From NCBI RefSeq assembly GCF_022352215.1, contig NZ_JAKRWF010000001.1:124001-188000 (forward strand): 64,000 nucleotides of DNA, in the 5' to 3' direction. The DNA is from Flavihumibacter cheonanensis (GTDB lineage Bacteria; Bacteroidota; Bacteroidia; Chitinophagales; Chitinophagaceae). Made by a program: the position numbers and the translations under genes. The stretch's first letter is position 1, and every line of letters starts with the position of its first letter. A model generated the notes under the pieces. That model made no database searches, was not told the DNA's origin, and was given only the letters and a program-made list of their open reading frames with translations. This document shows, piece after piece, positions 7,013-64,000 of the stretch.

Positions 7013-8322
7013 GGAAGCCTTTAGTTTTACTGTTATTCATCCTCTTCACCGGATTTGCCAGCTTTACGCAAAGCAACAAAACCGGTGATGCAGCAGCTTT
7101 GCATAAAGCACAGGATTATCTTACAGAAGTAATTGTTCACGATATTTTTTCTCCTCCTGTTGCAAGCCGGATCTATCTCTATCCGCATCTTGCTGTCTAT
7201 GAAACACTGGTTGCAACAGGCACCAACAAAGGGGCTTCCTTTTTTGGTAGGCTACCGGCTTTTCCTGCCATCTCAAAAATCAAAGGAACCATAGATCCTA
7301 TTATTGCCAGCCTGGAAGCCTTTCGGATTACCGGCCGGCAGTTTCTGTTTTCGGAAGAACGTTTTTCAGATTCCATGCAGGTGTTGATACAGGCTCAGCT
7401 TAAAGTACGGAAAGCAGATAAGCTCCTGAATGCCTCTCTTCAGGCCGGCAAACAGGTAGCTGACAGTATCCTGGTCTGGGCATCAAAAGACAGGTATAAA
7501 GAAACCCGGGCCATCCGCCGTTACCAGTTGAAGAAAACGCCCGGTTCCTGGCTCCCCACACCACCCGGTTATATCGCAGCCATTGAACCCCACTGGAAGC
7601 AGATCCGTTGCCTGACCCTCGACAGCGCAGCTGTTTTTCGTCCAAAAGCAGCCACTGAATTCTCTGTTGAGCCCGGAACCCCCTTTCACAAAGAAGCCCT
7701 GGAGGTTTACACCGTCTGCACTTCTTTAACCGATGAACAAAAAGCGATTGCTGCCTTCTGGGACTGCAACCCCTTCCACATTACCATGCAGGGGCACCTG
7801 AATTTTGCTACCAAGAAGATTAGTCCGGGTGGCCACTGGATGCAAATTGCCGGCCTGGTCAGCCGGATGAAATCCGAATCTATCAATGAAGCTTCCCAAG
7901 CCTACGCACTTACCGCCATCGCCATCTTTGATGCCTTTATCAGTTGCTGGGAAGAAAAATACAATAGCCAGCTAATCCGCCCCGAAACCTATATTAATAG
8001 TCATATTGATGAAAGCTGGCGTCCTATGCTTCAGACTCCTCCCTTCCCCGAATACCCTAGCGGGCATAGTGTAGTATCAGGAGCTGCAGCCACGGTTCTG
8101 ACAAAATTATATGGTGATAATTTTTCATTTGTGGATGATACCGAACGACCTTATGGATTGCCTGACAGAACCTTTCCCTCCTTTCACAAAGCAAGTGAAG
8201 AAGCAGCCATTTCCCGGTTGTATGGAGGCATCCATTACCGGCCAGCTATTGAAAATGGCCTGGAGCAGGGAAGAAAGGTGGGGCAACAGGTGGTAAAAAA
8301 ACTCGGACCTTTTGGCTTTTGA
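7009..8322 (+). CDS. Vanadium-dependent haloperoxidase-like PAP2 family protein
   Basis: 437 residues with a signal peptide (to about residue 21) and a PAP2/VHPO fold. The three vanadate/phosphate-binding motifs are visible: K317...R324-P325 (KYNSQLIRP), S351-G352-H353 inside EYPSGHS, and R403...H409 (RLYGGIHYR). With vanadate this fold oxidises halides using hydrogen peroxide; with water it can be an acid phosphatase. Sequence alone does not decide. It is the last gene of the 1711-8322 unit, overlapping the ASPIC gene by four bases. Its 3' end contains the -33 box of the rpoB promoter. A related gene lies at 54563. Confidence 0.85.
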   Translation: MRKPLVLLLFILFTGFASFTQSNKTGDAAALHKAQDYLTEVIVHDIFSPPVASRIYLYPHLAVYETLVATGTNKGASFFGRLPAFPAISKIKGTIDPIIASLEAFRITGRQFLFSEERFSDSMQVLIQAQLKVRKADKLLNASLQAGKQVADSILVWASKDRYKETRAIRRYQLKKTPGSWLPTPPGYIAAIEPHWKQIRCLTLDSAAVFRPKAATEFSVEPGTPFHKEALEVYTVCTSLTDEQKAIAAFWDCNPFHITMQGHLNFATKKISPGGHWMQIAGLVSRMKSESINEASQAYALTAIAIFDAFISCWEEKYNSQLIRPETYINSHIDESWRPMLQTPPFPEYPSGHSVVSGAAATVLTKLYGDNFSFVDDTERPYGLPDRTFPSFHKASEEAAISRLYGGIHYRPAIENGLEQGRKVGQQVVKKLGPFGF

Positions 8323-8341
8323 ATTAAATAAGCTACCTTTG
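8311..8341 (+). promoter_or_regulatory. Bacteroidetes-type promoter of rpoB
   Basis: A TTTG box at 8311-8314 is separated by 19 bp from TACCTTTG at 8334-8341, matching the known Bacteroidetes consensus TTTG-N19-21-TAnnTTTG. It begins inside the end of the haloperoxidase gene and would leave a 5' leader of about 105 bases before rpoB. The same -7 box, TACCTTTGCC, precedes rpoC. Confidence 0.7.
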
Positions 8342-8453: not shown

Positions 8454-11400
8454 ATGTCTTCAACTAAACAGAACACCAGGATCAACTTTGGTAAGATCAA
8501 ACACCTCGCTGAAGCTCCTGACCTGCTGGAAGTGCAGATTCAATCGTTTAAAGACTTCTTTCAATTAGAAACCACTCCCGACAAACGTAACAACGAAGGC
8601 CTGTTTAAGGTGTTCAAGGAGAACTTCCCGATCACCGACACCAGGAATATTTTCGTGCTGGAGTTTCTGGATTATTTCATTGATCCTCCCCGTTACACTA
8701 TTGAAGAGTGTATGGAACGCGGACTTACCTACGCTGTTCCCCTGAAAGCCAAGTTGCGTCTAAGTTGTAATGACGAAGAGCACGTGGACTTCCAGACCAT
8801 CGTACAGGATGTATTCCTCGGAAACATTCCTTACATGACCCCCCGCGGTACCTTTGTGATCAATGGTGCTGAGCGTGTAGTTGTATCCCAGCTGCATCGT
8901 TCCCCAGGTGTATTCTTCGGGCAGTCCATTCACCCGAATGGTACCAAGATCTATTCTGCACGGGTTATTCCTTTCAAAGGAGCCTGGATGGAATTTGCTA
9001 CCGACATCAACAATGTGATGTATGCCTATATCGATCGTAAGAAGAAGTTCCCTGTAACTACTCTTCTGCGTTCTATCGGCTTCGAAACAGATAAAGATAT
9101 CCTGGAACTCTTCGGTATGGCCGATGAAGTGAAAGGAGAGAAGAAAGCCCTGGAAAAATACCTGGGTAAAAAACTCGCTGCCCGCGTACTGCGTACCTGG
9201 GTTGAAGATTTCGTTGATGAAGATACCGGTGAGGTAGTTTCCATCGAAAGAAATGAAGTTGTAATGGAGCGTGATACCATCCTGGATGAAGAAGCAATCG
9301 ACGTGATTGTTGACATGGATGTGAAGAGTGTATTCCTGCAGAGGGAAGATGTTGGTGGTGATTATGCCATCATCTACAACACCCTTAATAAGGACACTTC
9401 CAACAGTGAACTGGAAGCGGTTCAGCATATCTACCGCCAGTTGCGTGGTGCGGACGCTCCGGATGATGAAACTGCACGCGGTATCATCGACAAACTCTTC
9501 TTCTCAGACAAGCGTTATGACCTGGGAGAAGTAGGTCGTTATAAAATCAACCGCAAACTGAATCTCAATTATCCACTTGATCATAAAGTATTGACCAAGG
9601 AAGATATCATTGAGATCATCAAATACCTGGTACGCCTCACTAACGGTAAAGCAGAAATCGATGATATCGATCACCTGAGTAACCGTCGTGTTCGTACTGT
9701 GGGTGAACAATTGTATGCGCAGTTCGGTGTAGGTCTGGCTCGTATGGCCCGTACCATCCGGGAGCGTATGAATGTTCGCGATAATGAAGTATTTACGCCT
9801 GTTGATCTGATCAATGCGCGTACCCTTTCTTCAGTTATCAACTCCTTCTTCGGAACCAGCCAGCTGTCTCAGTTCCTTGACCAGACCAACCCGCTGTCTG
9901 AGATCACGCACAAGCGTCGTATCTCTGCACTCGGACCAGGTGGTTTAAGCCGGGAGCGTGCGGGCTTTGAGGTTCGTGACGTACACTATTCTCACTATGG
10001 TCGTCTTTGTACTATTGAAACTCCGGAAGGACCAAACATTGGTCTGATCTCTACTCTTTGCGTTCACGCGAAGATCAACGAGATGGGCTTTATTGAAACG
10101 CCTTACCGCAAAGTAGAGAATGGTAAAGTGAACATGAAGGAACTGACCTTCCTGAGTGCTGAAGAAGAAGATACTGCCAAGATCGCCCAGGCGAATACAC
10201 CTCTGGCTGAAAATGGTGAATTTGTTGATGAGAAAATTACCAGTCGCGAAACCGGTGATTTCCCCATCCTTGATAAAACGGATGTAGAGTTCATGGACGT
10301 AGCCCCCAACCAGATTGTGGGTCTGTCCGCCTCTCTGATTCCTTTCCTTGAGCATGATGATGCCAACCGTGCCCTGATGGGATCAAACATGCAACGTCAG
10401 GCTGTACCGCTGATCAAACCTCAGGTTCCTATCGTAGGTACCGGTCTGGAAGCAAAAGCTGCCCGTGATGCACGTGTTCAGATTCTTGCTGAAGGTAATG
10501 GTGTGGTTGAGTATGTTGACGGTAATGAAATTCATATTCGTTACGATCGCAATGATGAGCAGCGTCTCGTTAGCTTTGAGGAAGACCTGATTGTATACCG
10601 CTTAACCAAATACCAGAAGACTAACCAGGAAACTTCGATCACACTGAAGCCGGCTGTGAAAAAAGGACAGCAGGTAAAAGAAGGTGATTTCCTTACAGAA
10701 GGATACGCTGTACAGGGTGGTGAAATCGCACTGGGACGTAACCTGAAAGTGGCTTTCATGCCATGGAAAGGATACAACTTTGAGGATGCGATTGTAATCA
10801 ATGAAAAAGTAGTTCGTGAAGACCTGTTTACTTCCATTCACATTTCTGAATATGAACTGGAAGTGCGTGATACCAAACTCGGTGAAGAAGAACTGACTCC
10901 GGATATTCCAAACGTTTCTGAAGAAGCAACCAAAGACCTCGATGAGAATGGTATCATTCGTGTCGGTGCCCAGGTGAAGGAAGGTGATATCCTGATCGGT
11001 AAGATCACTCCGAAAGGAGAATCTGATCCTACACCGGAAGAAAAACTGCTCCGTGCGATCTTCGGTGATAAAGCTGGTGACGCGAAAGATGCTTCCCTGA
11101 AAGCACCAAATGGTGTGGAAGGTGTGGTAATCGACAAGAAACTGTTCCAGCGCGCGAAGAAAGATAAGAATGCAAAAGTTCGTGAGAAGGCTGCTTTGGA
11201 AAAAGTAGAAAAAGTTCACGAGAAGAATACAGCAGATCTCCAGGAAGTATTGCTGAGCAAATTGCAGACCCTGTTGAAAGAAAAGCCTTCTGCAGGTGTT
11301 AGCAACAACTTCGGTGAAGTACAGATTGGTAAGGGTGCGAAGTTTACTGCCAAGAACCTGGCGGGACTTGACTTCCTGAACATCAATCCGCTTGGCTGGA

Positions 11401-12257
11401 CTGGCGATGAAAAAATCGATAGCCAGATCAACATTCTGTTGCACAACTACAGCATCAAGTACAACGAAGAGCTGGGTCGTTATAAGCGTGAGAAGTTCAA
11501 CATCAGCATCGGTGATGAATTACCTGCAGGTGTATTGAAACTCGCGAAAGTGTACCTCGCTGTTAAGCGTAAGCTGAAAGTGGGTGATAAAATGGCCGGT
11601 CGCCACGGTAACAAAGGTATCGTTGCTAAAATCGTACGTGCAGAAGATATGCCATTCCTCGAAAATGGCGAGCCGGTGGATATTGTACTGAACCCGCTGG
11701 GTGTACCTTCCCGTATGAACCTTGGACAGATTTATGAAACGGTACTTGGCTGGTGCGGTGAGCAGTTGAATGTTCGTTTCGCTACTCCGATCTTCGATGG
11801 TGCAAGCACTGATGAAATCGAGCAGTACTGCCAGGATGCAAACATTCCGATGATGGGTCACACCTACCTGTATGATGGTGAAACCGGTGATCGCTTCCAC
11901 CAGAAAGCAACCGTAGGTATAATCTACATGATCAAACTTCACCACATGGTGGATGATAAGATGCACGCCCGTTCTATCGGACCATACTCTCTCATTACAC
12001 AGCAGCCTCTGGGTGGTAAAGCCCAGTTCGGTGGTCAGCGTTTCGGTGAGATGGAAGTATGGGCACTGGAAGCCTATGGCGCATCTAACATCCTGCAGGA
12101 ATTGTTAACCATTAAGTCAGATGATATCATTGGTCGCGCTAAGACCTATGAGGCCATCGTTAAAGGTGACAACATTCCAAGAGCAGGTGTACCGGAATCA
12201 TTCAATGTATTGATTCATGAATTAAGAGGTCTGGGACTTGATTTGAAATTTGATTAA
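8454..12257 (+). CDS. rpoB: DNA-directed RNA polymerase subunit beta
   Basis: 1267 residues, full length, forming with RpoC the catalytic centre of RNA polymerase. Conserved blocks are intact: the rifampicin pocket near residues 465-510 ([24 protein letters not shown], all wild-type-like), [17 protein letters not shown] and the C-terminal [17 protein letters not shown]. It is not flanked by rplKAJL or rpoC as in most bacteria. Upstream is a haloperoxidase operon, and downstream are a terminator and an antiporter gene. It is therefore transcribed alone from its own promoter. rpoC lies 47.5 kb downstream on the same strand. Confidence 0.99.
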
Positions 12258-12279
12258 TCAAATCTTTTTATAAGTAGTA

Positions 12280-12310
12280 AGAGGGTGCCAGTCGGTACCC
12301 TCTTTTTTTT
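12280..12310 (+). terminator. Intrinsic terminator after rpoB
   Basis: GAGGGTGCC - AGTC - GGTACCCTC followed by eight or more T, 24 bases after the rpoB stop. It shows that rpoB transcription ends here and does not run into another polymerase gene. Confidence 0.9.
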
Positions 12311-12333
12311 ATCTTACAACAAAGTACACAGGT

Positions 12334-13419
12334 ATGAGCGTAATAACTAAAGTTGTCAGAAGATGGACAGAGATAGTACCTTTTTTATCCTTGTTACTTT
12401 ATTTTTTGAAACCAACCGATAGTCCGGGCTGGTACAATGTAGTTCTGATTGGTGGTCTGATCAGCGCCGTGCTGGTAGCTGTGCATCATGCAGAAGTGGT
12501 AGCACATAAAGTTGGAGAACCTTATGGTACTCTTGTGCTGGCAATAGCAGTTACTACCATTGAAGTGGCATTGATTGTTTCCCTTATGTTAGCAGGGGGA
12601 CCCGGAACTGAAACCCTCGCACGGGATACCATATTTGCAGCTATAATGATCATTTTAAACGCTATTACAGGCATTTGTTTGTTGGTTGGAGGGTTACGTC
12701 ACCGGGAACAGACATTTGGTCTGGATGGGATCAGTGCAGCACTGGTGGCGCTGCTGGCTATCGCGTTTTTAACCATGGTACTGCCTAATTTTACGACCAC
12801 CCAGGTTGGGCCTTCTTATTCCAATTCACAATTGTTATTCGTTGGCATTGTAACGCTGGTCATCTATCTCAGTTTTGTATTTATTCAGACCATCCGGCAT
12901 CGCGATTATTTCTTACCCGAAGTAGGAGAGGAGAATAGTGAAGTACATGCTGCTCCTCCAACTACCAAAGTCTTTGTGATGTCCCTGGTATTGCTGGTAC
13001 TGGCATTGGTTGCTGTTGTATTATTAGGTAAGTCGCTTTCACCGGTGATAGAATTAGGAATTGAGAGCATTGGTGCACCCAAAACCCTCGTGGGTATTAT
13101 CATTGCGATGGTGGTCTTGTTGCCGGAAGGATTGGCGGCTTATCGGGCCGCAAAAAATAACCGGCTGCAAAACAGTTTAAACCTGGCACTTGGATCTGCA
13201 CTGGCAAGTATTGGCTTAACCATACCCGTTGTAGCCGGAGTAAGTATTCTGATGGGATTTGATCTGTTATTGGGAATTGATTCCAAGTCTTCAGTACTCT
13301 TATTGATTTCACTGCTGGTAGTGATGATGTCTTTAAGAACCGGAAAAACCAACATCCTGCAGGGCATTATACTGGTGCTTTTATTTTTTGTTTATTTATT
13401 TGTTACCATTATTCCATAG
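12334..13419 (+). CDS. chaA: ChaA-type calcium/cation:proton antiporter
   Basis: 361 residues and about 10-11 membrane helices in two halves joined by a charged loop near residues 190-210. The CaCA-family motif is clear: HHAEVVAHKVGEPYGT at about 51-66, followed by TTIEVALIVSLML with E77 in the ion-binding helix. The second half carries PEGLAAYRAAKNNRLQNSLNLALGSALAS, the matching alpha-repeat. The family exports Ca2+ or Na+/K+ in exchange for protons at the inner membrane; the ion preference cannot be read from sequence. It sits 24 bases after the rpoB terminator and probably has its own promoter. Confidence 0.85.
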   Translation: MSVITKVVRRWTEIVPFLSLLLYFLKPTDSPGWYNVVLIGGLISAVLVAVHHAEVVAHKVGEPYGTLVLAIAVTTIEVALIVSLMLAGGPGTETLARDTIFAAIMIILNAITGICLLVGGLRHREQTFGLDGISAALVALLAIAFLTMVLPNFTTTQVGPSYSNSQLLFVGIVTLVIYLSFVFIQTIRHRDYFLPEVGEENSEVHAAPPTTKVFVMSLVLLVLALVAVVLLGKSLSPVIELGIESIGAPKTLVGIIIAMVVLLPEGLAAYRAAKNNRLQNSLNLALGSALASIGLTIPVVAGVSILMGFDLLLGIDSKSSVLLLISLLVVMMSLRTGKTNILQGIILVLLFFVYLFVTIIP

Positions 13420-13452
13420 GCAATTCGTAAATTCCTGTTTTCCAAATTACAT

Positions 13453-15429
13453 ATGAAACAGGTTATAACTCTGCTTATTGGGATAGGCTCCCTCACAAAT
13501 GTAGAAGCGCAATCAAAAAGAGCGCTTCAGCCAGAAGATATTTACCGAATGAAAACGGTTTCTTCTCCCCAGGTATCACCTGACGGGAACTGGGTCGTTT
13601 ACCAGGTTCGTTCAATTGATAGTGCTAAAGACAAGTCCAGCTCTGATTTGTGGATGATGAGCTGGGATGGCAAAGAAAACTGGCAATTAACGTATGATGC
13701 AGCCGGTGAATCTGCTCCTAAATGGAGCCCGGATGGAAAGTTTATTTCGTTTTTATCAACCCGAACTGGTGATAAAAACAGCCAGGTTTATGCGCTTCCA
13801 ACCAAAGGAGGAGAGCCGAAAAGAATAACCAATATTAAAGGTTCCATCAATGAATACCTGTGGGCACCTGATGGAAAAAAACTGGTACTTAGTATTTCTG
13901 ATCCTGACTATTCAGATACGGCTGCCAGCAAGATCAGGAAGCCTTATGTAATCAATCGGTATCAATTCAAGCAAGACCGGGAAGGATACCTGGACAGCAC
14001 AGGAACGCATCTCTATTTGTTTGATATTCCCTCCGGCAAACTGGACACACTAACTTCCGGGGTATATTCAGAAACACAGCCTGCCATTTCACCGGATGGC
14101 AATCTATTGGCTTTTGTGAGTAACCGAACTGCGGTTCCCGATAAAAATGATAATTCAGATATCTTCCTGATGGAACTTAAAAAAGGAGCAGTTCCCCAGC
14201 CAGTTACCAGTTGGAAAGGAAGTGATAGCAGACCCGTTTTTAGTCCCGATGGCAAACAGCTTGCCTATCTGCAAAGCTCTAGCCAGGATGATTTTACCAT
14301 GTACGGGCACTCCATATTGGGGGTTATTTCAATAGCCGATAAAAAGTCCCGTTTGCTTAGTTCTCAACTGGATCGTCCGGTTCAGAATATTCGTTGGGAA
14401 GCAGATGGGCAGGGTTTGCTCGCATTAATGGAAGACGATCGCAGGGTACAGGTGATCCGGGTAAATGCCGGAACAGGGGCTCATGAAACTATTACCAGCG
14501 GAGATCATAGTTTTTATGGAATGGAGCTTAATACGGCAAAGAAATCATGGGTCGGATTAAGAAGTACACCTACGCTGCCAGCAGAACTGTTTGCATTTGA
14601 ATCCGGGCAATTGCGTCAGATGACACATCACCAGGATAGTTTCCTTGCTCCGCTTCAATTGCCCCTGGTGGAAGGCTTTCAATCAACCAGTAAAGATGGC
14701 ACCAAAGTATCCGGAATTCTTTATAAGCCACATACCTACCAGGCTGGCCAAAAACTGCCCTTGGTTATTTTCATTCACGGTGGACCGGTTGCGCAGGATG
14801 AGTTTGATTTTGATATGACACGAATGGTATATGCGGCTGCAGGGTATGCAGTAGCTGCCGTGAATTACAGGGGCAGCAGTGGAAGGGGAGTTGCTTATAT
14901 CCGGTCTATCTATGGCGATTGGGGTAATAAAGAAGTTATGGACGTGGTTGGAGTAGCCAATCACCTGGTTGCTGCAGGTGTTGCAGATCCCGCTCGTATG
15001 GGCCTGGGAGGCTGGAGTTATGGTGGTATCACTACCAACTATACCATTGCAACCGATACCCGATTTAAAGCAGCTGTGAGTGGTGCTGGTAGTTCACTTC
15101 AGTTAAGTCTTTATGGCAGTGATCAATATATCGCACAATATGAATATGAATTAGGGGTGCCCTGGAAAAACCGCGACAAATGGCTGGCGCTTTCCTATCC
15201 GTTTTTCAAAGTAGACAAAATAAAAACGCCCACGCTGTTTATGGCAAGCGAGAGCGATTTTAATGTTCCGGTAGCCGGAGCTGAACAAATGTACCAGGCA
15301 TTTAAGTCGGTGGGTATACCAACAGAACTGGTCATTTATCCAAAGCAATACCATGGTATTTCAGTTCCCAGTTACCAGGTCGACCGGCTGAAACGTCATA
15401 TTGCCTGGTATAATAAATACCTCAAATAA
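13453..15429 (+). CDS. S9 family prolyl oligopeptidase, secreted
   Basis: 658 residues with a signal peptide ending near VEAQ (residue 19). An N-terminal WD40/PD40-like beta-propeller has repeated SPDGxxxxF/Y motifs, followed by an alpha/beta-hydrolase domain. Catalytic triad: S522 in GGWSYGG, D602 in ASESDFNVP and H634 in KQYHG. Enzymes of this family cleave short peptides, often after proline, or remove acyl-amino acids in the periplasm. The gene ends flush against the convergent bestrophin gene with no spacer. Confidence 0.88.
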   Translation: MKQVITLLIGIGSLTNVEAQSKRALQPEDIYRMKTVSSPQVSPDGNWVVYQVRSIDSAKDKSSSDLWMMSWDGKENWQLTYDAAGESAPKWSPDGKFISFLSTRTGDKNSQVYALPTKGGEPKRITNIKGSINEYLWAPDGKKLVLSISDPDYSDTAASKIRKPYVINRYQFKQDREGYLDSTGTHLYLFDIPSGKLDTLTSGVYSETQPAISPDGNLLAFVSNRTAVPDKNDNSDIFLMELKKGAVPQPVTSWKGSDSRPVFSPDGKQLAYLQSSSQDDFTMYGHSILGVISIADKKSRLLSSQLDRPVQNIRWEADGQGLLALMEDDRRVQVIRVNAGTGAHETITSGDHSFYGMELNTAKKSWVGLRSTPTLPAELFAFESGQLRQMTHHQDSFLAPLQLPLVEGFQSTSKDGTKVSGILYKPHTYQAGQKLPLVIFIHGGPVAQDEFDFDMTRMVYAAAGYAVAAVNYRGSSGRGVAYIRSIYGDWGNKEVMDVVGVANHLVAAGVADPARMGLGGWSYGGITTNYTIATDTRFKAAVSGAGSSLQLSLYGSDQYIAQYEYELGVPWKNRDKWLALSYPFFKVDKIKTPTLFMASESDFNVPVAGAEQMYQAFKSVGIPTELVIYPKQYHGISVPSYQVDRLKRHIAWYNKYLK

Positions 15430-16341: not shown

Positions 16342-16360
16342 GTGATCGGGTTGAGACAAG

Positions 16361-16846
16361 TTAATAAGCCGCAGTTAGTTCTCTCTTCTGTGTAACAACC
16401 TGTTTGGATTTTTGGGCGGGAGCAACAGGAACTTCTCTGATCACTTTCACCGGTGCGGCATTGATAAAAGAACCGGGATTAATGAAACGTTGATGAGGTT
16501 GAATCAATGTATATGCTTCCGGAAAGAATATCTCATCAATATCATTGAATTCCAGGTGGTTTTTGAATAATTTCTGTGTATTTCCATACATGTATTTGTA
16601 GTACATGTTGCCGATTTTTTCAGCATATTTTTCCTTCAGGCGTTTGCATCCTTTCCTGAATTCTTCATTCATAACCTGGAGGTGAGGTTTATTGTCTGAC
16701 CCAATCACGTCCTGTTCTGAGTCGGGCATTTCAAATGCAGCGAACAATACGATGGTGTTTTTATAGGTGGAATTGTTTTTTATATACAGCTCCAAAACAC
16801 TGAGAGATTGCGTGGTAAAATCAGTTGGGAATAAAATGTTTTTCAT
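16361..16846 (-). CDS. Small protein with a universal-stress-protein-like start
   Basis: 161 residues from ATG 16846 (MKNILFPTDFT). The opening beta strand and the loop ILFPTDF-T-S resemble UspA proteins, but the ATP-binding GxxGxxxS motif near the end is absent and the C-terminal 30 residues are rich in K, Q and A. I would call it a divergent Usp-fold protein of unknown function. It lies between a two-component system and a bestrophin gene on the same strand. Confidence 0.5.
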   Translation of the reverse strand: MKNILFPTDFTTQSLSVLELYIKNNSTYKNTIVLFAAFEMPDSEQDVIGSDNKPHLQVMNEEFRKGCKRLKEKYAEKIGNMYYKYMYGNTQKLFKNHLEFNDIDEIFFPEAYTLIQPHQRFINPGSFINAAPVKVIREVPVAPAQKSKQVVTQKRELTAAY

Positions 16847-18338: not shown

Positions 18339-18339
18339 A

Positions 18340-21432: not shown

Positions 21433-21445
21433 CAGAATTGATTTC

Positions 21446-50438: not shown

Positions 50439-50451
50439 TTATTGTTGCTGC

Positions 50452-54429: not shown

Positions 54430-54512
54430 AATGCCGGTTTATTGAGTAACAGGAATTGATTTAGGAATTGCTATTAAAAGTTATGAAATACTTTGAATGA
54501 TTGTATAAAATT

Positions 54513-54542
54513 AAAGAGGCCTTCATGATTGAAGACCTCTTT
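54513..54542 (-). terminator. Terminator after the second haloperoxidase-like gene
   Basis: AAAGAGG-CTTCA pairs with TGAAG-CCTCTTT around a short loop, 20 bases after the stop at 54563, followed on the - strand by AATTTTAT. The A/T ends make it possible in both directions. Confidence 0.75.
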
Positions 54543-54562
54543 ACCTGGAATGTGGTTGTTGC

Positions 54563-55888
54563 TTATTCCGGGAAATAGTTTTGCTTTTTCAAATGGTTGT
54601 CTACAATTGCCGCCGTATTTCTTCCCAGCTCTAAACCTTGCTCAATAGAGCGCCGGTAATGTATTCCCCCGAACAAACGGGATAAGCCGGCCTCTTTTGC
54701 AGCATCCGAAATGCTATTGAATTTTCTGGGTGCCATGCTGAGATGATCATAGGTATGATCTGTAAACGAATACTGGTCGCCGAAGGATTTTTCCAGGGCA
54801 TATGCGGCCGAACCGGAAAGGGTTGCGTGGGCCGCAACATATTCCGGATGAGGTGGAGTACCAATAAAGGAATTCCAATTCTCAATACCCATATGTTTCC
54901 GGATATAAGTGATGGGGCGTATCAGGTGAAAAGTATACTTTGCTTTCCAGGTTGCAATACCTGCATCATGCATTGTGATACCCAAACGTAAATAAGCTTC
55001 AACTGCTTTTCCCAGGGGTGGCCTTTCACTTCTGAGTAGTTGTCTGAAAATACTGAACCAATGCCCAAACACGCTCACATATTTTCCATTTGGAGCATCA
55101 TCCCAGAAATTGGCAATGGCTTTTTGCTCATCTGTTAATGATTGCGACACATCGTACACTTCCCTTACCATAGTATAAAATGCTGTTCCGGTTTCTTTGG
55201 AAAATGGAACCGGGGCAGGTGGCATCGTACTGGTACTTCCAGGAATGAATGCTCGCACATTTACCCAGCCTGGCACATTCGCCGCCGCATAGGCCGCGGG
55301 GGTTGGCTCCCAATAGCCTTCTCCCTTCGTTTCATAGAGAAGATTGATATGGTCGGCACCATCGGATTTACTCCACGCTGTAACAGCAAGGGCTACTTGT
55401 TTTCCATAAGCCTGGGACTGATTGAGCAGGTTCAATTGCTTCACCTGGTTTTTGTATTTATTGAAATAGAGTTGTTCAAGTGAATCAATGCTGAAAACCA
55501 ACGGTGCTTTATCTGCATAAAAAAAACGCAGGGTTTCCGCAATAGCTGCATTGGCAGCAACTGGTCTGAATAGCGGCTTTCCTGCTGGATGGGATGGCAA
55601 ATCAAATTGGCCGTTTAGCTTGCCTGCCAAACTTTTGAATGGTGAATCTCCTGCTGCAAATGATTCGTATAATGCAATACCGGTATAAGCAAAATGCCTC
55701 GAGTAAGCAATATGAGTTACACCCGTATTTCTTTTAACGAGTAAAAGCTGAAGTGAAATCCAGTCTTCCAACAACTCGGAATTATGAAATTTTAAAGGAT
55801 CCGGCTGAGGATACTGCGGATGTTTTGTTTTTTGACAGGCTGTCAATAGACTGATTAATAGGAGTAAACCTGTGAATATATTTTTCAT
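54563..55888 (-). CDS. Haloperoxidase-like PAP2 lipoprotein
   Basis: 441 residues from ATG 55888, which gives a lipoprotein signal (MKNIFTGLLLLISLLTAC); the frame is open further upstream but without sense. Same fold as the protein at 7009. K...RP is present (KYTFHLIRP) and so is R...H (SRLFGGIHYRR). The middle motif, PSGH in the first protein, here reads VAAHAT, so the histidine is kept while Ser-Gly is replaced by Ala-Ala. This could alter anion binding. Probably on the periplasmic or outer surface. It overlaps no neighbour and lies 34 bases after the methyltransferase. Confidence 0.8.
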   Translation of the reverse strand: MKNIFTGLLLLISLLTACQKTKHPQYPQPDPLKFHNSELLEDWISLQLLLVKRNTGVTHIAYSRHFAYTGIALYESFAAGDSPFKSLAGKLNGQFDLPSHPAGKPLFRPVAANAAIAETLRFFYADKAPLVFSIDSLEQLYFNKYKNQVKQLNLLNQSQAYGKQVALAVTAWSKSDGADHINLLYETKGEGYWEPTPAAYAAANVPGWVNVRAFIPGSTSTMPPAPVPFSKETGTAFYTMVREVYDVSQSLTDEQKAIANFWDDAPNGKYVSVFGHWFSIFRQLLRSERPPLGKAVEAYLRLGITMHDAGIATWKAKYTFHLIRPITYIRKHMGIENWNSFIGTPPHPEYVAAHATLSGSAAYALEKSFGDQYSFTDHTYDHLSMAPRKFNSISDAAKEAGLSRLFGGIHYRRSIEQGLELGRNTAAIVDNHLKKQNYFPE

Positions 55889-55922
55889 GATAAGATTGAT
55901 ATTTGTTTGAATGAATCTGTGA

Positions 55923-56705
55923 TTATTTTTTTGCAATGAAGAGCAAAAAACTGTTTTGCTGGAAGTAGATATCATCCACAATGCGATACGGCTGTAAAGC
56001 AGCAGCTATCGTTTCTTCCACTTGTTTTTTGTCTGCATAGTTCAAGACTGCTGCAGCCGGACCAGTACCCATAAAGCTTCTGATGCCATTGCCCAGACTT
56101 TGATAAATAAAGGGACAACTGATTTGAATGCTGTTGATCAGATTAAATCCGGTTTCCTTCAGATACTCTTCCATCTTACCATCTTCTGATAAGGAAAAGG
56201 GACCGGGTGTTCCAGGAAGGGGAGGAGGAAGCAGGGTGCTGATCGCTTTTAATACGTCCGTGCCGTCACTGTTTGCTGGTTTATCCCATATTGCCAGCAC
56301 CAGTGTTCCTCCTGGTTTCAGCACTCTGTGAGCTTCCGAAAGTGCCTGCCGGAAATTTCCTGCATACTGGAAGGAATTAAATCCGGTTACCACATGAAAG
56401 CTGTTACTGGCAAAGGGCATTGCTTCCAGGTCCTCTTCCATGAAATTGTTTTGAGGATTCCGTTGCCTGGCAAGTTCCAGTAAGCCCGGAGCAGCATCTA
56501 TGCCGATTACCTGGGCGCCGGCATCAATTGCCATACTACTGAACATACCGGATCCACAACCGGCATCCAGCAACATGGTATCCGGACTGATCTCCAACTC
56601 CTGTAAAGCTTTTTTGTAAAGCGGTAAAAAATAAAGTTCGAAATGGGTGGACCAATTTTGGGGTGAGATACTCCACAATTTTCCCTGCACTGTTTTTGTG
56701 CTCAT
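55923..56705 (-). CDS. Class I SAM-dependent methyltransferase
   Basis: 260 residues. SAM loop LLDAGCGSGMFSS at 45-57; acidic strand end GIDAAPGLLELAR; motif GFNSFQYAG and AHRVLKPGGTLVLAIW, typical of Methyltransf_11. The substrate is not evident; small molecules such as quinones are common for the fold. It lies on the same strand as the AraC-type gene upstream (about 100-base gap). Confidence 0.85.
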   Translation of the reverse strand: MSTKTVQGKLWSISPQNWSTHFELYFLPLYKKALQELEISPDTMLLDAGCGSGMFSSMAIDAGAQVIGIDAAPGLLELARQRNPQNNFMEEDLEAMPFASNSFHVVTGFNSFQYAGNFRQALSEAHRVLKPGGTLVLAIWDKPANSDGTDVLKAISTLLPPPLPGTPGPFSLSEDGKMEEYLKETGFNLINSIQISCPFIYQSLGNGIRSFMGTGPAAAVLNYADKKQVEETIAAALQPYRIVDDIYFQQNSFLLFIAKK

Positions 56706-56806
56706 GATGAAAAGGTTTAATGATTAATGATAAATGACAGAAACAAAGCTAACTGCTCTGATCATGGAGAGGATTGCTTTAAAGTCCAGATTGCTGTCTA
56801 AAAAGT

Positions 56807-57670
56807 TCAGTTGGAAACCTGCTTCTTCCTGGAGGTGGGAGTAATGCCGAATTGCAGTTTAAATGCACGACTAAAATGGGTAGGATTTTCAAATCCACTT
56901 TCAAATGCCACTTCACCAATGGTTTTGTCTGTATGTGTGAGCAGGTGCATGGAATGATGCAGTCTTTTATCCATCAGCCATTTACCCGGTGTAGTTCCAA
57001 ACTGTTTTTGAAAATCACGTTTAAAGGCGGAAAGGCTTCTGTTGGAAAGCTTCGCAAATTCTTCCAGTTTTAAATTGTAGCAGTAATTATCCTCCATCAC
57101 TCGTTGCAAGGAAACAGCAACGGGTTCTTTGAGTAAGGAACAGAAATAGGATAACAGTTCGTAGTTGTTGGGATTATCTGCTATGGTTAGAATCAGTTCT
57201 CTGAATTTCAATTCCAGCAGGGAAGGATCGGGCTGCCGTTCACTTTCAAAATAGGGAATCATGGAATGAAAAAAAGAATGAACACCCGGATTATTGGTTA
57301 TGGAAATGATAGGTTCAAATTTGATTGCCGGTTTGCTTAAAGGGTAGGTTTTTGTTTTGAGGACATCGCGTATAAAATCATCTGGAATAAAAAATACCAT
57401 GAGACAAAAAGGGGTATCAAAAAACTGTTCTACAAGACAACCTCCTTTTCGAACAAATACACAACTTCCTTTTTGAAGATCATACGAACCATGTGCCGTA
57501 TGCCATATTTTCCGACCTTCAATTACATAAACAATGTAGTTGTGATGACTCCAGGTATCTTCCACTTTGTTTTCAAGCGGACAGTTGTAGAGTGTAATTA
57601 AGTTTTCACCGCATTTTAATTGCCGGTATTGCTGGGGATGGTTTACTATGGCATTGTACAGGTTAAACAC
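56807..57670 (-). CDS. AraC-family transcriptional regulator
   Basis: 287 residues with a GTG start; no closer ATG exists. N-terminal cupin-like sensing domain (about 1-150, with YVIEGRKIWHTAHGSYDLQKGSCVFVRKGG), and two helix-turn-helix motifs in the last 100 residues (LEEFAKLSNRSLSAFKRDFQKQFGTTPGKW and IGEVAFESGFENPTHFSRAFKLQFGITP). It probably controls the adjacent methyltransferase and/or the divergent esterase gene, whose start is 63 bases away. Confidence 0.9.
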   Translation of the reverse strand: MFNLYNAIVNHPQQYRQLKCGENLITLYNCPLENKVEDTWSHHNYIVYVIEGRKIWHTAHGSYDLQKGSCVFVRKGGCLVEQFFDTPFCLMVFFIPDDFIRDVLKTKTYPLSKPAIKFEPIISITNNPGVHSFFHSMIPYFESERQPDPSLLELKFRELILTIADNPNNYELLSYFCSLLKEPVAVSLQRVMEDNYCYNLKLEEFAKLSNRSLSAFKRDFQKQFGTTPGKWLMDKRLHHSMHLLTHTDKTIGEVAFESGFENPTHFSRAFKLQFGITPTSRKKQVSN

Positions 57671-57733
57671 CGTACCTTATTTTGGCAAAGCTAGGATAAG
57701 TAATTCTACCTTCAATAATTAAATCAATCTGAA

Positions 57734-58804
57734 ATGAAAAGGTCAGCAGCACTTCTGCTATTCAGTTTATTCATCTTTTCTTTACATGGACAGGGGCAGG
57801 GCAAATTGGAAAGGAAGGAGTTCAAATCAGGATCCTTAGTGAACAACCCTGCTGGTGAATCTTCCAACCGGATGGTTTCGGTGTATTTACCACCAGGATA
57901 CGATAAAACCAGCCAACGTTATCCGGTGATTTATTTTTTACACGGATTTTCAACTACTGATAAAGACATGACCGACTGGTTTCAAATCCAGACCCTGATG
58001 GACAGTGCGATTGCCGCAGGCCATATTCGTCCGGTTATAGTAGTATTTCCAAACAGTGATACCAAATACAGAGGTAGTTTTTATACGAACTCGTCAATGG
58101 GAAATTGGGCCGATTTTATTACAAAGGATCTGGTAAACTGGGTGGATCAGCAATACCGTACACTGGCATCCGCTTCCAACAGGGTTTTAACAGGGCATTC
58201 AATGGGCGGTAATGGCAGCCTGAAATTAGCTATGCAAAATCCGGATGTGTTTTCAATGGTATATGCACTAAGTCCTGCAGTATTAAACTGGCATGGCGAC
58301 TTCAATTTGAATAATCCAACCTTTAAACGGTTATACAAATTGCAGGCAGATCCAAACTTGAAAAATGCGGTGGATAGTATTTATAAAGAAGACAATTGGC
58401 AGTCTTTTTATTCGGGCGTATATGCAGCAATGGGAATCGCTTACACACCTGATCCGTCTAGAAAAGCATTTCCGGTTGCATTGCCGGTAACCTATATTGG
58501 CGACAGTGCGGTCTATCATCCGGATCGGATTCAAAAATGGGAGGATAATTTTCCCTATTTCATGATTGACAATCATCTTGTTCAACTAAAAAAGCTGAAA
58601 GCCATCAAACTGGATTGGGGCCGTAATGAAGATTTTTCTCATATTCCGGTTACTGCACTGGCTTTCAGTAAGAAGCTGGAAGCCTATGGTATTGAACATG
58701 AGGCCGAGGAATACATCGGAGATCATGGCAATAAGATTGGCGGATTCCAGGGACGATTCTTTACAGAAGTGCTTCCTTTTTTTGAGAGAAACTGGTCGCA
58801 GTAA
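57734..58804 (+). CDS. Secreted alpha/beta-hydrolase esterase
   Basis: 356 residues with a signal peptide to about residue 19 (LHGQGQG). Putative esterase fold of the Fes/esterase-D kind: SVYLPPGYDKTSQRYPVIYFLHGFS, nucleophile S156 in TGHSMGGNGSLKLA, and the histidine near 335 in GDHGNKIGGF. It would cleave esters of sugars, siderophores or xylan side chains outside the cytoplasm. Divergent from the AraC gene. A weak promoter candidate (TTTG 57681, TACCTTCA 57707) lies upstream. Confidence 0.85.
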   Translation: MKRSAALLLFSLFIFSLHGQGQGKLERKEFKSGSLVNNPAGESSNRMVSVYLPPGYDKTSQRYPVIYFLHGFSTTDKDMTDWFQIQTLMDSAIAAGHIRPVIVVFPNSDTKYRGSFYTNSSMGNWADFITKDLVNWVDQQYRTLASASNRVLTGHSMGGNGSLKLAMQNPDVFSMVYALSPAVLNWHGDFNLNNPTFKRLYKLQADPNLKNAVDSIYKEDNWQSFYSGVYAAMGIAYTPDPSRKAFPVALPVTYIGDSAVYHPDRIQKWEDNFPYFMIDNHLVQLKKLKAIKLDWGRNEDFSHIPVTALAFSKKLEAYGIEHEAEEYIGDHGNKIGGFQGRFFTEVLPFFERNWSQ

Positions 58805-59079
58805 TCAATTCTTACTAAAAAGTTCCAGTTTTACGTGAGCCGATTGAGCCGATTAATGGGTTCCTAAGCGGTTGATAATAGGTTCATTAGTGTAGGATGC
58901 TCGTAGGAAGCTCGAAGGAACGCTGTAGGATGAGTTAATGAACAGTATAATTTAAATATTATTTGAGGGTATTGTGGTAATATTAATATAAATTATAACA
59001 AAAACTACTATAACAAGTAGTAAACGATCGGCTCAAATAGTAAAAAAATCGGCTCAAACTTCAAATAATCGGCTCAAAA
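58805..59079. repeat. Cluster of short repeats around TGAGCCGAT
   Basis: The motif TGAGCCGAT occurs at 58836 and 58845 on the + strand and three times inverted as ATCGGCTCAAA at 59027, 59048 and 59068, spaced 21 and 20 bases, about two helix turns. Between the groups, GTTCATTA (58882) and TAATGAAC (58936) enclose near-repeats of GTAGGATG/GTAGGAAG. No gene is visible. The array ends directly at the stop codon of the 59080 gene. Confidence 0.8.
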
Positions 59080-59526
59080 CTAGACCTCAGTTTTCAATCG
59101 CGCGTACTTCAGTTCCTCATCCTCCAGCCAGAACTCCCAGTGCGGGTTCATGAAATCATCGGTTTCATGGATCCAGCGGCCACCGCCAAGAGGAGCTATC
59201 AATTCCTTCAGGAAAGATTTGATTTCCGATTTGCGCACCTGAAAGGCAGCTTTCCGATCCTGCAGGGCTGTTAACTCATCATGTACCTGCTTGATGGCCA
59301 GGATTTCGGAATCGGTATAGGTTTTGTCGGATTTTCGCAATATCAGTTGATGATAGCGGGCTTTTACATTCTTAATATCCTTGTCTAAGGACCCAGCCAG
59401 CTTGTCCTGCTCAAACAGTTCCTGGACCAACACTTTTAAATCAACCGGCTGGGCAGGAGAGGAAACAGGAGCAGGGTAAATCATTGAGGCGGGATGGGAA
59501 CTGGCAATTTTCAGGGCTTCAGACAT
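59080..59526 (-). CDS. Unknown small protein upstream of rpoC
   Basis: 148 residues, not recognised. The first 30 residues are rich in A, P and S; residues about 30-110 form a charged helix-rich, coiled-coil-like stretch (DKLAGSLDKDIKNVKARYHQL, AFQVRKSEIKSFLKEL), and the end is compact and aromatic (GGGRWIHETDDFMNPHWEFWLEDEELKYAR). No signal peptide or membrane helix. Both flanks are unusual: a perfect palindrome about 20 bases before the start and a repeat array right after the stop. It is divergent from rpoC. Confidence 0.6.
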   Translation of the reverse strand: MSEALKIASSHPASMIYPAPVSSPAQPVDLKVLVQELFEQDKLAGSLDKDIKNVKARYHQLILRKSDKTYTDSEILAIKQVHDELTALQDRKAAFQVRKSEIKSFLKELIAPLGGGRWIHETDDFMNPHWEFWLEDEELKYARLKTEV

Positions 59527-59609: not shown

Positions 59610-59641
59610 ATTGTCTTTATTGGATACATTCCTTACCTTTG
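59610..59641 (+). promoter_or_regulatory. Bacteroidetes-type promoter of rpoC
   Basis: ATTG (59610-59613) is 20 bp before TACCTTTG (59634-59641), the same -7 box and next bases (CC) as at rpoB. It would leave a 5' leader of about 160 bases that shows no strong terminator-like hairpin. Confidence 0.65.
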
Positions 59642-59803
59642 CCCACTATTTAAGTTGGGAAAAATCGGTGCATTTCATATAACGTGTTGAAAATCATTCT
59701 GTTTCGTTTGGCCGGAAAAGGGCTCTGAACGAACGGAATCTTGTATGTAATACCGTCAGTACCAACCGGGTAGTATCCATAAAACACAATCTGTAGTATA
59801 TAT

Positions 59804-62800
59804 ATGGCTATCAAAAAAGAAAATCGTCCCAGGTCCAGTTTCTCCAAAATCACCATTGGACTGGCTTCACCCGATTCCATTCTGGAAAAAAGTTACGGTG
59901 AAGTGTTGAAGCCTGAAACCATCAACTATCGTACGTACAAGCCTGAAAGAGACGGTCTGTTCTGCGAGCGCATCTTTGGTCCGGTTAAGGATTACGAATG
60001 TGCCTGCGGAAAGTATAAGCGGATCCGTTATAAGGGTATTGTCTGCGACCGTTGCGGTGTGGAGGTTACGGAGAAGAAGGTTCGTCGCGAGCGCATGGGA
60101 CATATCAAGCTGGTAGTTCCAGTAGTGCATATCTGGTATTTCAAGAGTCTGCCGAACAAAATCGGTTACCTCCTTGGTATGAGCTCCAAGAAACTGGAAA
60201 GCATTATTTATTACGAAAGATTTGTGGTTATCCAGCCGGGTATCCGTGCGGATAAAGGACAAAACGTAGGAGATCTCCTCACTGAAGAAGAATACCTGGA
60301 TCTGCTGGAAACCCTTCCAAAAGACAACCAGTACCTGCCGGATGAAGATCCCAACAAGTTCATCGCCAAAATGGGTGCTGAAGCGGTTCATGATTTGCTG
60401 GCCCGTATCGATCTGGATCAGTTGAGTTATGACCTGCGGAATGCAGCAGCTACGGAAACTTCTCAGCAGCGTAAGGCAGATGCCCTGAAGCGTCTGAGTG
60501 TTGTTGAAGCCTTCCGTGATGCGAATAGCAGAATCACCAACCGCCCTGAGTGGATGGTTATGCAATATATTCCTGTCATTCCACCAGAACTGCGTCCCTT
60601 GGTTCCCCTGGATGGCGGTCGTTTCGCGTCTTCTGACCTGAACGATCTGTATCGCCGGGTAATTATCCGGAACAACCGTCTGAAGCGTTTGCTGGAAATC
60701 AAAGCACCTGAAGTAATCCTTCGTAACGAAAAAAGGATGCTGCAGGAAGCAATTGACTCCCTGTTTGATAACAGCCGTAAATCCAATGCGGTGAAAGCAG
60801 AAGGCGGACGTGCACTGAAATCTCTTTCTGATGTACTGAAAGGTAAGCAGGGACGTTTCCGTCAGAACCTCCTCGGTAAACGTGTTGACTATTCCGGTCG
60901 TTCTGTAATTGTAGTAGGACCAGAATTGAAAATGCACGAATGTGGTCTGCCGAAAGATATGGCGGCTGAATTGTTCAAGCCATTTATCATCCGCAAACTC
61001 ATAGAGCGCGGTATTGTAAAAACTGTAAAGAGTGCCCGTAAACTGGTTGACAAAAAAGAGCCGGTGATTTGGGACATTCTTGAAAATATTCTGAAGGGGC
61101 ACCCGGTAATGTTGAACCGTGCCCCAACGCTGCACCGTCTTTCTATCCAGGCCTTCCAGCCTAAACTGATTGAAGGTAAAGCAATCCAGTTGCACCCATT
61201 GGTAACTACTGCCTTCAACGCCGACTTTGATGGTGACCAGATGGCGGTACACGTGCCATTGAGTAACGCAGCGATCCTGGAAGCACAGTTGCTGATGCTC
61301 TCTGCTCACAACATTCTGAACCCGCAGAATGGTACACCAATTACCCTGCCTTCGCAGGACATGGTACTCGGACTGTATTACATTACCAAAGGAAAGAAGT
61401 CTACCGAAACGGAGAAGGTTCGTGGTGAGGGCATGAGCTTCTATTCTCCTGAAGAAGTGATTATCGCTTATAATGAAGATCGCATTGATCTGCATGCGCC
61501 GATCAAAGTGAAAGTGAATGTGCGGGATGCTAAAGGTAAACTGGAGAAGAAACTGATCGAAACTACTGTAGGTCGCATACTGTTCAACCAGTTCGTACCT
61601 GCTGAAGTAGGCTATGTGAATGCCCTGTTGACCAAGAAGTCGCTGAGAGATATCATTGGTGATATCATCAATATTACCAACGTTCCTAAGACTGCGAAGT
61701 TCCTGGATGAAATCAAGCAACTAGGATTCCGTATGGCCTTCCGTGGTGGCTTGTCGTTCAACCCGCAGGATCTGATCATTCCGGATGTGAAAGGTCAGTT
61801 GCTGGAGAATGCCAAAGCTGAAGTGGATGAAGTATGGGATAACTATAACATGGGTCTGATCACCAATAACGAACGTTATAACCAGATCGTAGACATCTGG
61901 TCAAGGGTGGATACCCGTATCACGGAGACCCTTATCCGCGAAATGCAGAATGACAAACAGGGCTTTAACTCTGTTTACATGATGCTGGATTCCGGTGCCC
62001 GTGGTTCCAAGCAGCAGGTTAAGCAGCTGGCAGGTATCAGGGGTCTGATGGCCAAGCCGCGTAAGAGTGGATCTACAGGTTCAGAGATCATCGAAAACCC
62101 GATTCTCTCCAACTTTAAAGGAGGATTGAACGTATTGGATTACTTCATATCTACCCACGGTGCGCGTAAAGGTCTGGCGGATACGGCTCTTAAAACAGCG
62201 GATGCCGGTTACCTCACCCGTCGTCTGGTGGATGTTGCCCAGGATGTGGTGATCACTGAAGAAGATTGTGGTACCCTGCGTGGTATTGCAACAACTGCGT
62301 TGAAAGATAATGAAGACATTATCGAACCACTGAAAGACAGAATTGAAGGACGTTACAGTCTGCATGATATTTTCGATCCGATCTCTGAAGAACTGCTGGT
62401 ATCTGCAGGTGAAGAGATCTCTGCCTTCACTGCCCAGCGCATTGATGATTCAGGAATCGAAACAGTTGAAATCCGCTCCGTACTCACTTGTGAAAGCAAG
62501 CGTGGTGTGTGTGTGAAATGTTATGGTAAGAACCTGGCAACCGGTTACACGGCGCAGAAAGGTGATGCAGTAGGTATCATCGCTGCCCAGTCTATCGGTG
62601 AACCTGGTACACAGCTTACCCTGCGTACCTTCCACGTGGGTGGTGTTGCAGGATCTGCTTCTGTTGAATCCAGCCTGCTTGCCAAATTTGATGGCACCAT
62701 GCTGTTCGACGGTCTGCGTACTGTAACAACAGAGAACCAGGAAGGAGAGAAGGTAGAGATCGTAATAGGTCGTACCGGTGAAATCCGTAACATGGATGTG

Positions 62801-64000
62801 GAGAATGATCGCCTGCTGAATGTGGTGAACATTCCTTATGGTGCAACGCTCCAGGTGAAGAATGGTCAGAAAGTGAAGAAAGGAGATGTGATCTGCACCT
62901 GGGACCCCTATAACAACGTTGTGATTGCGGAAATTCCTGGTGTTGTGAAATTCGAGCACGTAATTGAAGGTATCACCTATCGCGAAGAGTCGGATGAACA
63001 AACCGGTCACCGTGAGAAAGTGGTAATCGAAACCAAGGATAAAACCAAGATTCCTTCTATCCTCCTCGAAGGAAAAGAAATCAAATCTTATAACCTCCCG
63101 GTTGGTTCTCATATCATCATGGATGAAGGCGATGAAGTGAAAGCCGGACAGGTATTGGTGAAGATCCCGCGTGTTCTTGGAAAACTGCGCGATATCACAG
63201 GTGGTCTGCCACGTGTAACAGAATTGTTTGAAGCACGTAACCCGGGTAACCCTGCGATCGTTTCTGAAATCGACGGTGTTGTAGCATTTGGTGCTATCAA
63301 GCGTGGTAACCGTGAGATCATTGTAGAAGCCAGAGATGGTGTAACCAAGAAGTACCTGGTACCGCTGACTCGCCAGATCCTGGCTCAGGATGGCGACTTC
63401 GTAAAAGCGGGTGTGGCACTGTCTGATGGTCAGATCGCTCCAAGTGATATCCTCTCCATTAAAGGACCATTTGCAGTACAGGAGTACGTAGTGAATGAGA
63501 TCCAGGAAGTATATCGCTTACAGGGTGTGCGTATCAATGATAAACACATTGAAGTGATCGTTCGCCAGATGATGAAGAAAGTATCCATTGTTGATCCGGG
63601 AGATACCAAGTTCCTGGAAGACGATACAGTTGATAAGTTCGACTTCATCGAGGAGAATGACTGGATCTATGATAAAAAGGTAGTAACTGATCCGGGAGAA
63701 AGCAGCAGAATGCGTGCCGGACAGATTGTGAACCTGCGTGAGCTGCGTGAAGAGAATTCCATCCTGCGTCGTTCTGACAAGAAGCTGGTGGAATATCGCG
63801 ATGCACAATCTGCAACATCTCATCCGTTGTTACTGGGTATTACCAAAGCGTCTCTGGGTGTACAAAGCTGGATTTCTGCAGCTTCCTTCCAGGAAACTAC
63901 AAAAGTGCTGAGTACTGCAGCGATAAATGGTAAAACTGATGACATGATGGGATTGAAGGAAAATGTGATCACTGGTCACCAGATTCCTGCCGGTACCGGA
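59804..64000 (+). CDS. rpoC: DNA-directed RNA polymerase subunit beta', 3' end missing
   Basis: 1399 codons are visible from ATG 59804 ([12 protein letters not shown]) and the frame is open at the window end; perhaps some tens of residues are missing. First zinc site C66, C68, C81, C84; active-site [10 protein letters not shown] at 472-481, whose aspartates bind the catalytic Mg2+; second zinc site C822, C896, C903, C906, with the same spacing as in E. coli. The end GHQIPAGTG is typical of the C-terminal region. Not preceded by rpoB: the neighbour is a divergent unknown gene, and it has its own promoter. Confidence 0.99.

What the first reader, a model, noticed from the sequence alone, without database searches (positions are those of the whole stretch)
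8311..64000. rpoB and rpoC are uncoupled, 47.5 kb apart, with matching separate promoters
In most bacteria rpoB and rpoC are adjacent and cotranscribed behind ribosomal protein genes. Here rpoB (8454-12257) has a haloperoxidase operon upstream and a strong terminator downstream. rpoC starts at 59804 on the same strand, next to an unknown gene. Both have a TTTG-like box and TACCTTTGCC at 19-20 bp spacing, suggesting that balanced expression is kept by twin promoters rather than by an operon. All motifs of both subunits are intact, so this is a rearrangement, not a pseudogene copy.
Basis: partly seen in the sequence, partly recalled or inferred. Interest (0 to 1): 0.75.

Follow-up and report, generated by a model that had tools for sequence, protein, structure and literature searches.

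The report
RNA polymerase operon split by insertion
In this bacterium the genes for the two largest RNA polymerase subunits, normally side by side, lie 47.5 kb apart with amino-acid biosynthesis genes between them, and about a third of the sampled genera of its family show a split, which offers a natural test of why these genes usually stay together.

Summary
rpoB (8454-12257) and rpoC (from 59804) are intact, on one strand, 47,546 bp apart, with one genomic match each. Three more genomes of the genus show it, so it is no misjoin. It is not private: 32 of 98 sampled Chitinophagaceae genera are split, against 0 of 129 placed Bacteroidota genomes outside the family.

The same genes lie between rpoB and rpoC in several other genera, while rpoB and rpoC tend to keep their usual outer neighbours. 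I read this as insertion of chromosomal genes.

Terminator and promoter go with the split: terminator after rpoB in 37 of 47 split loci versus 3 of 90 adjacent; -7 box before rpoC in 34 of 38 versus 4 of 90, the chance level. The 'twin' promoters mostly share the sigma-A consensus.

Open: split and adjacent lineages interleave, and one clade of split lineages is rejected. Repeated insertion, re-joining or lateral exchange is needed. My searches found no printed report.

The parts
7009..8322 (+). PAP2-superfamily gene upstream of rpoB (outside the operon's usual neighbours)
8311..8341 (+). rpoB promoter-like boxes: TTTG, 19 nt, TACCTTTG
   Evidence: box upstream of rpoB in 46 of 46 split and 74 of 85 adjacent family loci
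8454..12257 (+). rpoB, RNA polymerase beta subunit
12279..12312 (+). intrinsic terminator-like hairpin and T run after rpoB
12334..19023 (.). extra genes on the rpoB side (Na/Ca exchanger, S9 peptidase, bestrophin, unknown, two-component pair); the six are found in the same stretch in G008, fewer in G179 and G108
19099..23986 (-). thrC, thrB, thrA-like genes of the shared block
24151..26778 (+). ppc (PEP carboxylase) of the block
27332..33270 (+). PSCyt/DUF1501 cassette inside the block; first two genes not found in the ten relatives compared, third only in G008
33340..35989 (-). porin-like and amtB (ammonium transporter) genes of the block
36320..42444 (-). gltD-like and gltB (glutamate synthase) genes of the block
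42552..49060 (-). ilvA, ilvC, ilvN, ilvB, ilvD genes of the block
49323..51612 (-). leuB-like and leuA-like genes of the block
51818..53368 (+). TPR protein gene; directly before rpoC in several split relatives
53371..59526 (.). extra genes on the rpoC side (desaturase, unknown, methyltransferase, AraC-type regulator, esterase, unknown)
59610..59641 (+). rpoC promoter-like boxes: ATTG, 20 nt, TACCTTTG
59642..59803 (+). presumed rpoC leader
   Evidence: start site not mapped
59804..64000 (+). rpoC, RNA polymerase beta' subunit, running off the window

Best explanation
The ancestral gene row rplKAJL-rpoB-rpoC was opened between rpoB and rpoC by insertion of ordinary chromosomal genes. The core of the insert is a thr-ppc-amtB-glt-ilv-leu amino-acid biosynthesis block in reverse orientation; other genes were added at both ends, and in the window's lineage further genes also separated rpoB from rplKAJL. 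Each RNA polymerase gene became its own transcription unit: rpoB uses a sigma-A type promoter that unsplit family members mostly also have, and now ends in an intrinsic terminator; rpoC has gained its own sigma-A type promoter and leader. Shown by sequence: the shared block between the genes, outer neighbours kept in several relatives, terminator and promoter box tied to the split. Inferred: that insertion (not two separate moves) made it, that the boxes are used, and that beta and beta' amounts are matched by promoter strength, translation and turnover instead of a shared message.
For: All four genomes sampled from the genus have rpoC on the same strand downstream of rpoB, at 32.0, 41.7, 47.6 and 96.8 kb. 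Of 16 block genes of the window, hits lie between rpoB and rpoC for 16 in G008, G179, G108, G061 and G072 (ilvC of G072 at only 24% identity), 14 in the fetched part of G035 (amtB at 30% and out of order; its leuA and TPR lie next to rpoC) and 11 in G039, in the same orientation. Canonical ribosomal-protein genes lie upstream of rpoB in G061 and G035, and canonical genes follow rpoC in G061, G035 and, for the first one, G039. ilvC lies 8-32 kb from rpoC on the opposite strand in 14 of 33 split genomes (29 of the 33 have ilvC); of 34 adjacent genomes with ilvC, 9 have it on the rpoC contig, none nearer than 145 kb. Terminator after rpoB: 37 of 47 split loci (35 of 44 without three contigs that entered twice) versus 3 of 90 adjacent; shuffle means 0.8 and 0.45. 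Box before rpoC: 34 of 38 split versus 4 of 90 adjacent spacers (shuffle mean 5.5) and 0 of 34 outgroup spacers (shuffle mean 1.5).
Against: Split loci were scanned over 300 bp, adjacent spacers have a median of 106 bp, so the box counts must be read against their own shuffles (11.2 of 42 loci including four near-split ones, and 5.5 of 90). Four of 38 split rpoC loci (G013, G043, G047, G154) and ten of 47 rpoB loci lack the motif as scanned. The block is not shown in every split: G010 had hits to none of the 16 genes in the 19.9 kb fetched; G010, G044, G099 and G146 have no ilvC match; in G018, G055, G067, G116 and G141 rpoB, rpoC and ilvC are far apart. G039 has about 7 kb of other ORFs between its rplJ-like gene and rpoB, and G080's 15-kb flanks share no gene family with the canonical ones. 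The IlvD tree does not unite the split lineages. No transcript data.
Confidence: 0.8

Rival explanations
1. History A: the block was exchanged or inserted more than once. Fragments carrying rpoB'-block-rpoC' (or rpoB'-rpoC') recombined in the conserved rpoB and rpoC flanks between lineages, so that the same arrangement appears in lineages that are not each other's closest relatives.
For: One clade of the 18 split rows is rejected on AlaS+GyrA (p-AU 7.7e-89) and on RpoB+RpoC (1.6e-4). G098 and G146 sit differently on RpoB+RpoC than on AlaS+GyrA. IlvD pairs such as G096-G009 and G081-G039 do not follow the other trees.
Against: Trees are quick and partly unresolved, and single-gene trees disagree widely; AlaS seems unreliable. 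Nearest-relative scans of RpoB and RpoC halves gave no clear mosaic. Keeping RpoB+RpoC of G066 and G146 together is not rejected (p 0.24). No donor was identified.
Confidence: 0.4
2. History B: one ancestral insertion, followed by several losses that brought rpoB and rpoC back together in lineages such as G028/G076, G098, G016, G068 and G066/G087.
For: Same block, same orientation and similar ends in many genera argue for one origin; rpoC leaders of several split lineages begin alike. G066 and G087 keep the canonical order on both sides, as a clean deletion would also leave.
Against: Needs several precise re-joinings; the spacers of seven such genomes (99-539 bp) have no promoter box, so the rpoC promoter would have to be lost too. 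Canonical flanks fit never-split lineages equally well.
Confidence: 0.3
3. One reading: a private rearrangement in which matched twin promoters were selected to keep rpoB and rpoC expression balanced.
For: Both genes have TACCTTTGCC at similar spacing and this 9-mer core occurs only at these two places in the window.
Against: The split is shared by many genera; the variable box bases agree only a little more often than in shuffles; rpoB of adjacent genomes mostly has a box as well (74 of 85).
Confidence: 0.07
4. Assembly misjoin, or a second adjacent rpoBC copy elsewhere in the genome.
For: None found; the assembly is in 241 contigs.
Against: One match per gene in the genome; same arrangement in three other genomes of the genus; closed or near-closed family genomes are also split.
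Confidence: 0.01

Closest known systems
[quoted passage not shown] PMC8046335, passages seen)
   Same: Same genes; outer neighbours partly kept in split relatives.
   Different: rpoB and rpoC lie 47.5 kb apart, with own terminator and promoter box. The passages I saw (12 of 16 places) tell of insertions between operons of the cluster and of an rplJL deletion in Haemophilus influenzae, not of a split inside rpoBC; the words Bacteroidetes and Bacteroidota do not occur in its main text.
Fused rpoB-rpoC of Helicobacteraceae and Wolbachia (named in a passage of PMC7483510)
   Same: Another departure from the usual layout of the same gene pair.
   Different: The opposite direction: fusion, not separation.
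Operon break-up with promoter gain (general process; recalled, no call)
   Same: The downstream gene gains a promoter, the upstream gene a terminator.
   Different: Here it concerns one of the most conserved gene pairs, in many genera of one family, often with the same insert.

Membership tests
Canonical rpoBC operon | rpoB and rpoC adjacent | tested here: not met
   47,546 bp apart
Canonical rpoBC operon | rplKAJL directly upstream of rpoB | tested here: not met
   no member of these gene families in 20.4 kb upstream in the window's genome; in L002 some lie 7-10 kb upstream (gene names from size and order, recalled)
Canonical rpoBC operon | usual right-hand neighbours of rpoC kept | tested here: met
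   four gene families found after rpoC in adjacent genomes also follow it here
Bacteroidota sigma-A promoter (TAnnTTTG at -7, TTTG near -33; passages of PMC7366714 and PMC9723704) | -7 box before both genes | tested here: met
   8334-8341 and 59634-59641
Bacteroidota sigma-A promoter (TAnnTTTG at -7, TTTG near -33; passages of PMC7366714 and PMC9723704) | -33 box TTTG | tested here: inconclusive
   TTTG before rpoB, only ATTG before rpoC; the passage of PMC7366714 says the -33 motif was not found in Flavobacterium johnsoniae
Bacteroidota sigma-A promoter (TAnnTTTG at -7, TTTG near -33; passages of PMC7366714 and PMC9723704) | mapped transcription start | not testable with these tools
   no RNA data
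Mobile genetic element insertion | integrase or transposase in the insert | tested here: not met
   31 intervening genes scanned with Pfam, none matched such a family; three had no match at all
Mobile genetic element insertion | tRNA gene at a boundary | tested here: not met
   no tRNA in the window
Mobile genetic element insertion | flanking direct repeats | not tested
   no repeat search was run

The most novel reading that the evidence does not exclude
Chitinophagaceae have lost the constraint that ties rpoB to rpoC: the junction is opened, and perhaps closed again, repeatedly, by recombination of the same amino-acid block in the conserved rpoB and rpoC flanks, and a terminator plus promoter pair comes and goes with it, giving a natural experiment on why this operon exists.
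Probability: 0.35. Interest if true: 0.78.

Novelty: new variant of a known kind. Interest (0 to 1): 0.62.

Why it matters
rpoB-rpoC adjacency is usually taken as fixed and as serving equal supply of beta and beta'. A family in which about a third of sampled genera are split, with one genus (G066 adjacent, G146 split) showing both states, allows a direct comparison of subunit balance, polarity and growth with and without the operon. PMC7483510 (passages) argues that the length and order of the pair make its expression sensitive to limits on translation; split lineages could test that.

Tried and rejected
Misjoin and second copy: rejected. Mobile element: no integrase or transposase by Pfam in 31 genes and no tRNA; flanking repeats were not searched. 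Unrelated independent splits: suggested by 10 changes on the first tree, then put aside for the block-bearing genera because the same block lies between. One ancestral split whose descendants form one clade: rejected by AU tests. Duplication of rpoBC with differential loss: predicts the block beside rpoBC in adjacent genomes; none was seen in the adjacent loci (little flank: often 2 kb upstream and under 1 kb downstream, up to 10 kb in named loci) and no ilvC lies nearer than 145 kb on the same contig; not fully excluded. rpoC promoter already present in adjacent relatives: not supported (4 of 90 spacers, chance 5.5). Mosaic rpoB or rpoC as a sign of transfer: nothing clear. Spacer RNA: no Rfam match in nine loci and the window; the conserved spacer motif proved to be a dispersed repeat. 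Literature: (open-access library only) listed no paper that I recognised as describing this split; listings give 10 or 20 titles of up to 315; one search looked for Flavihumibacter genomes and none was opened; one search was for the promoter consensus.

Full report
Observation. rpoB and rpoC are intact as far as the window shows, on the same strand and 47,546 bp apart. The window's genome (4.84 Mb, 241 contigs; the window is C110:124001-188000 of a 2.1-Mb contig) has one match for the rpoC N-terminal family and one for the rpoB C-terminal family. The closest named RpoB is that of Flavihumibacter stibioxidans, 97%, so the window is probably from Flavihumibacter or a near relative.

How common. 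Of 195 Chitinophagaceae genomes searched, 179 had both genes placed (16 dropped for lack of one or both): 110 adjacent, 26 on one contig but apart, 43 on different contigs. Different contigs can be mere fragmentation: G023 turned out adjacent. With DNA fetched from 109 genomes of 98 genera: 32 genera split (31 with at least 3 kb, mostly 5 kb, of rpoC-free DNA after rpoB, and 1 probable with 0.7 kb), 4 with a 2.1-4.5 kb insert, 1 unresolved, 64 with an adjacent genome; g66 has a split and an adjacent genome, g31 and g56 a near-split and an adjacent one. Outside the family all 129 genomes with both genes placed are adjacent, domain gap 42-423 bp, median 105; of the 138 genomes of that sample 7 were family members and 2 had no match; only 2 are from the same order and 25 from the same class. 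Among the 80 named loci two Saprospiraceae have inserts of 1.8 and 2.4 kb (L042, L044), so small gaps are not confined to the family, and L050, filed as Chitinophagaceae with RpoB 78% identical to the window's, has no rpoC in 10 kb.

What lies between. All 31 genes were scanned with Pfam: they include thrC, thrB, thrA, ppc, a porin, amtB, gltD, gltB, ilvA, ilvC, ilvN, ilvB, ilvD, leuB, leuA and a TPR gene (names inferred from the families). These genes, mostly in the same order and in the same orientation, lie between rpoB and rpoC in G008, G179, G108, G061, G072, G035 and G039 (weak hits and gaps are listed under evidence). leuA and/or TPR lie within 4 kb before rpoC in ten of the 45 rpoC loci fetched from genomes filed as not adjacent (G035, G039, G053, G061, G072, G077, G080, G143, G179, G194), and thrC lies after rpoB in L002, L005, L008, L009, G061, G072, G073, G143, G179 and G194 (L009 and G061 are one contig by length). 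Adjacent genomes usually show a row that I read, from sizes and order and by recall, as tuf, nusG, rplK, rplA, rplJ, rplL, rpoB, rpoC, then a recurring set of genes. Split G061 and G035 keep the left row before rpoB and the right set after rpoC; G039 keeps the left row but with about 7 kb of other ORFs before rpoB, and the first right-hand gene; G080 keeps neither; the window keeps only the right side. I read this as insertion between the two genes, not as a move of rpoC. Away from rpoBC, thrA and ilvC lie 14-22 kb apart on one strand in adjacent G021, G029, G071, G081, G085 and G100, so part of the block probably existed before. G096 has thrA near rpoB on one contig and ilvC near rpoC on another, as if the block was later broken; that the Mb-scale splits are later scattering is inference.

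Regulation. A TAnnTTTG box lies within 300 bp before rpoC in 35 of 42 split or near-split loci (shuffles mean 11.2, largest 19), 34 of 38 without the four near-split ones; adjacent spacers of the family 4 of 90 (shuffles 5.5), outgroup spacers 0 of 34. rpoB has a box in 46 of 46 split, 74 of 85 adjacent family and 8 of 34 outgroup loci, the last near its shuffle mean of 6.7: in the family rpoB seems to have had its own promoter before the split. The stricter two-box pattern was rarer: 14 of 42 before split rpoC (shuffles 2.4) and 0 of 90 in adjacent spacers. The rpoC leaders of many split lineages start alike (judged by eye). The consensus was taken from passages of PMC7366714 and PMC9723704.

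History. On a 128-row RpoB+RpoC tree the two states need at least 10 changes; on 30 genomes 8 (AlaS+GyrA), 6 (RpoB+RpoC) and 7 (all four). G077 had a very long AlaS branch and its gyrA hit was below the cut-off, so it was left out. One clade of all 18 split rows is rejected. Single-gene trees disagree, AlaS most (10 changes), and the IlvD tree is poorly resolved with odd pairings and does not unite the split lineages. I cannot decide between repeated insertion or exchange and insertion followed by re-joining; the first is slightly favoured because several re-joinings would each have to lose the rpoC promoter as well.

Literature. The searches listed no paper that I recognised as describing a split rpoB-rpoC in this family; subscription papers are mostly not in that library. 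PMC8046335, PMC7483510, PMC7366714 and PMC9723704 were seen as passages only. How beta and beta' are kept in balance when split was not tested by anything here.

Noticed in passing
window 1-8453 with L246; L002: rpoB is also cut off from the rplKAJL row: none of those gene families in 20.4 kb upstream; L002 has some of them 7-10 kb upstream of rpoB, with seven genes between that are shared with the window's genome.
   Followed up: partly
L011 13887, L088 4953, L097 4961, L108 5917 and others: An intergenic repeat (ACAAGWGTGYGACGCAAC) occurs in 16 of 365 loci, several in rpoB-rpoC spacers, others in alaS or ilvD loci; a 12-base part of it is not in the window even with one mismatch; no Rfam match in nine loci.
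   Followed up: partly
window 27332-33270: A PSCyt1/DUF1549/DUF1553 - DUF1501 cassette with Planctomycete-named domains lies inside the block; its first two genes were not found in the ten relatives compared.
   Followed up: no
G022, G024, G027, G034, G047, G072, G083, G087: An ilvC frame of about 500 aa with two KARI_C matches replaces the roughly 350-400 aa type in some genera.
   Followed up: no
G066 (L319) and G146 (L326, L327): Two genomes of one genus differ: rpoBC adjacent in G066; in G146 rpoC lies 124 kb upstream of rpoB on the same strand, each with its canonical outer neighbours.
   Followed up: partly
adjacent rpoB-rpoC spacers of the family: 40 of 90 hold a hairpin of at least 6 bp (shuffle mean 11.8), but only 3 of 90 have one with a T run.
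   Followed up: no
G111, G125, G140, G041, L042, L044: Small inserts of 1.8-4.5 kb between rpoB and rpoC, two of them in Saprospiraceae.
   Followed up: no
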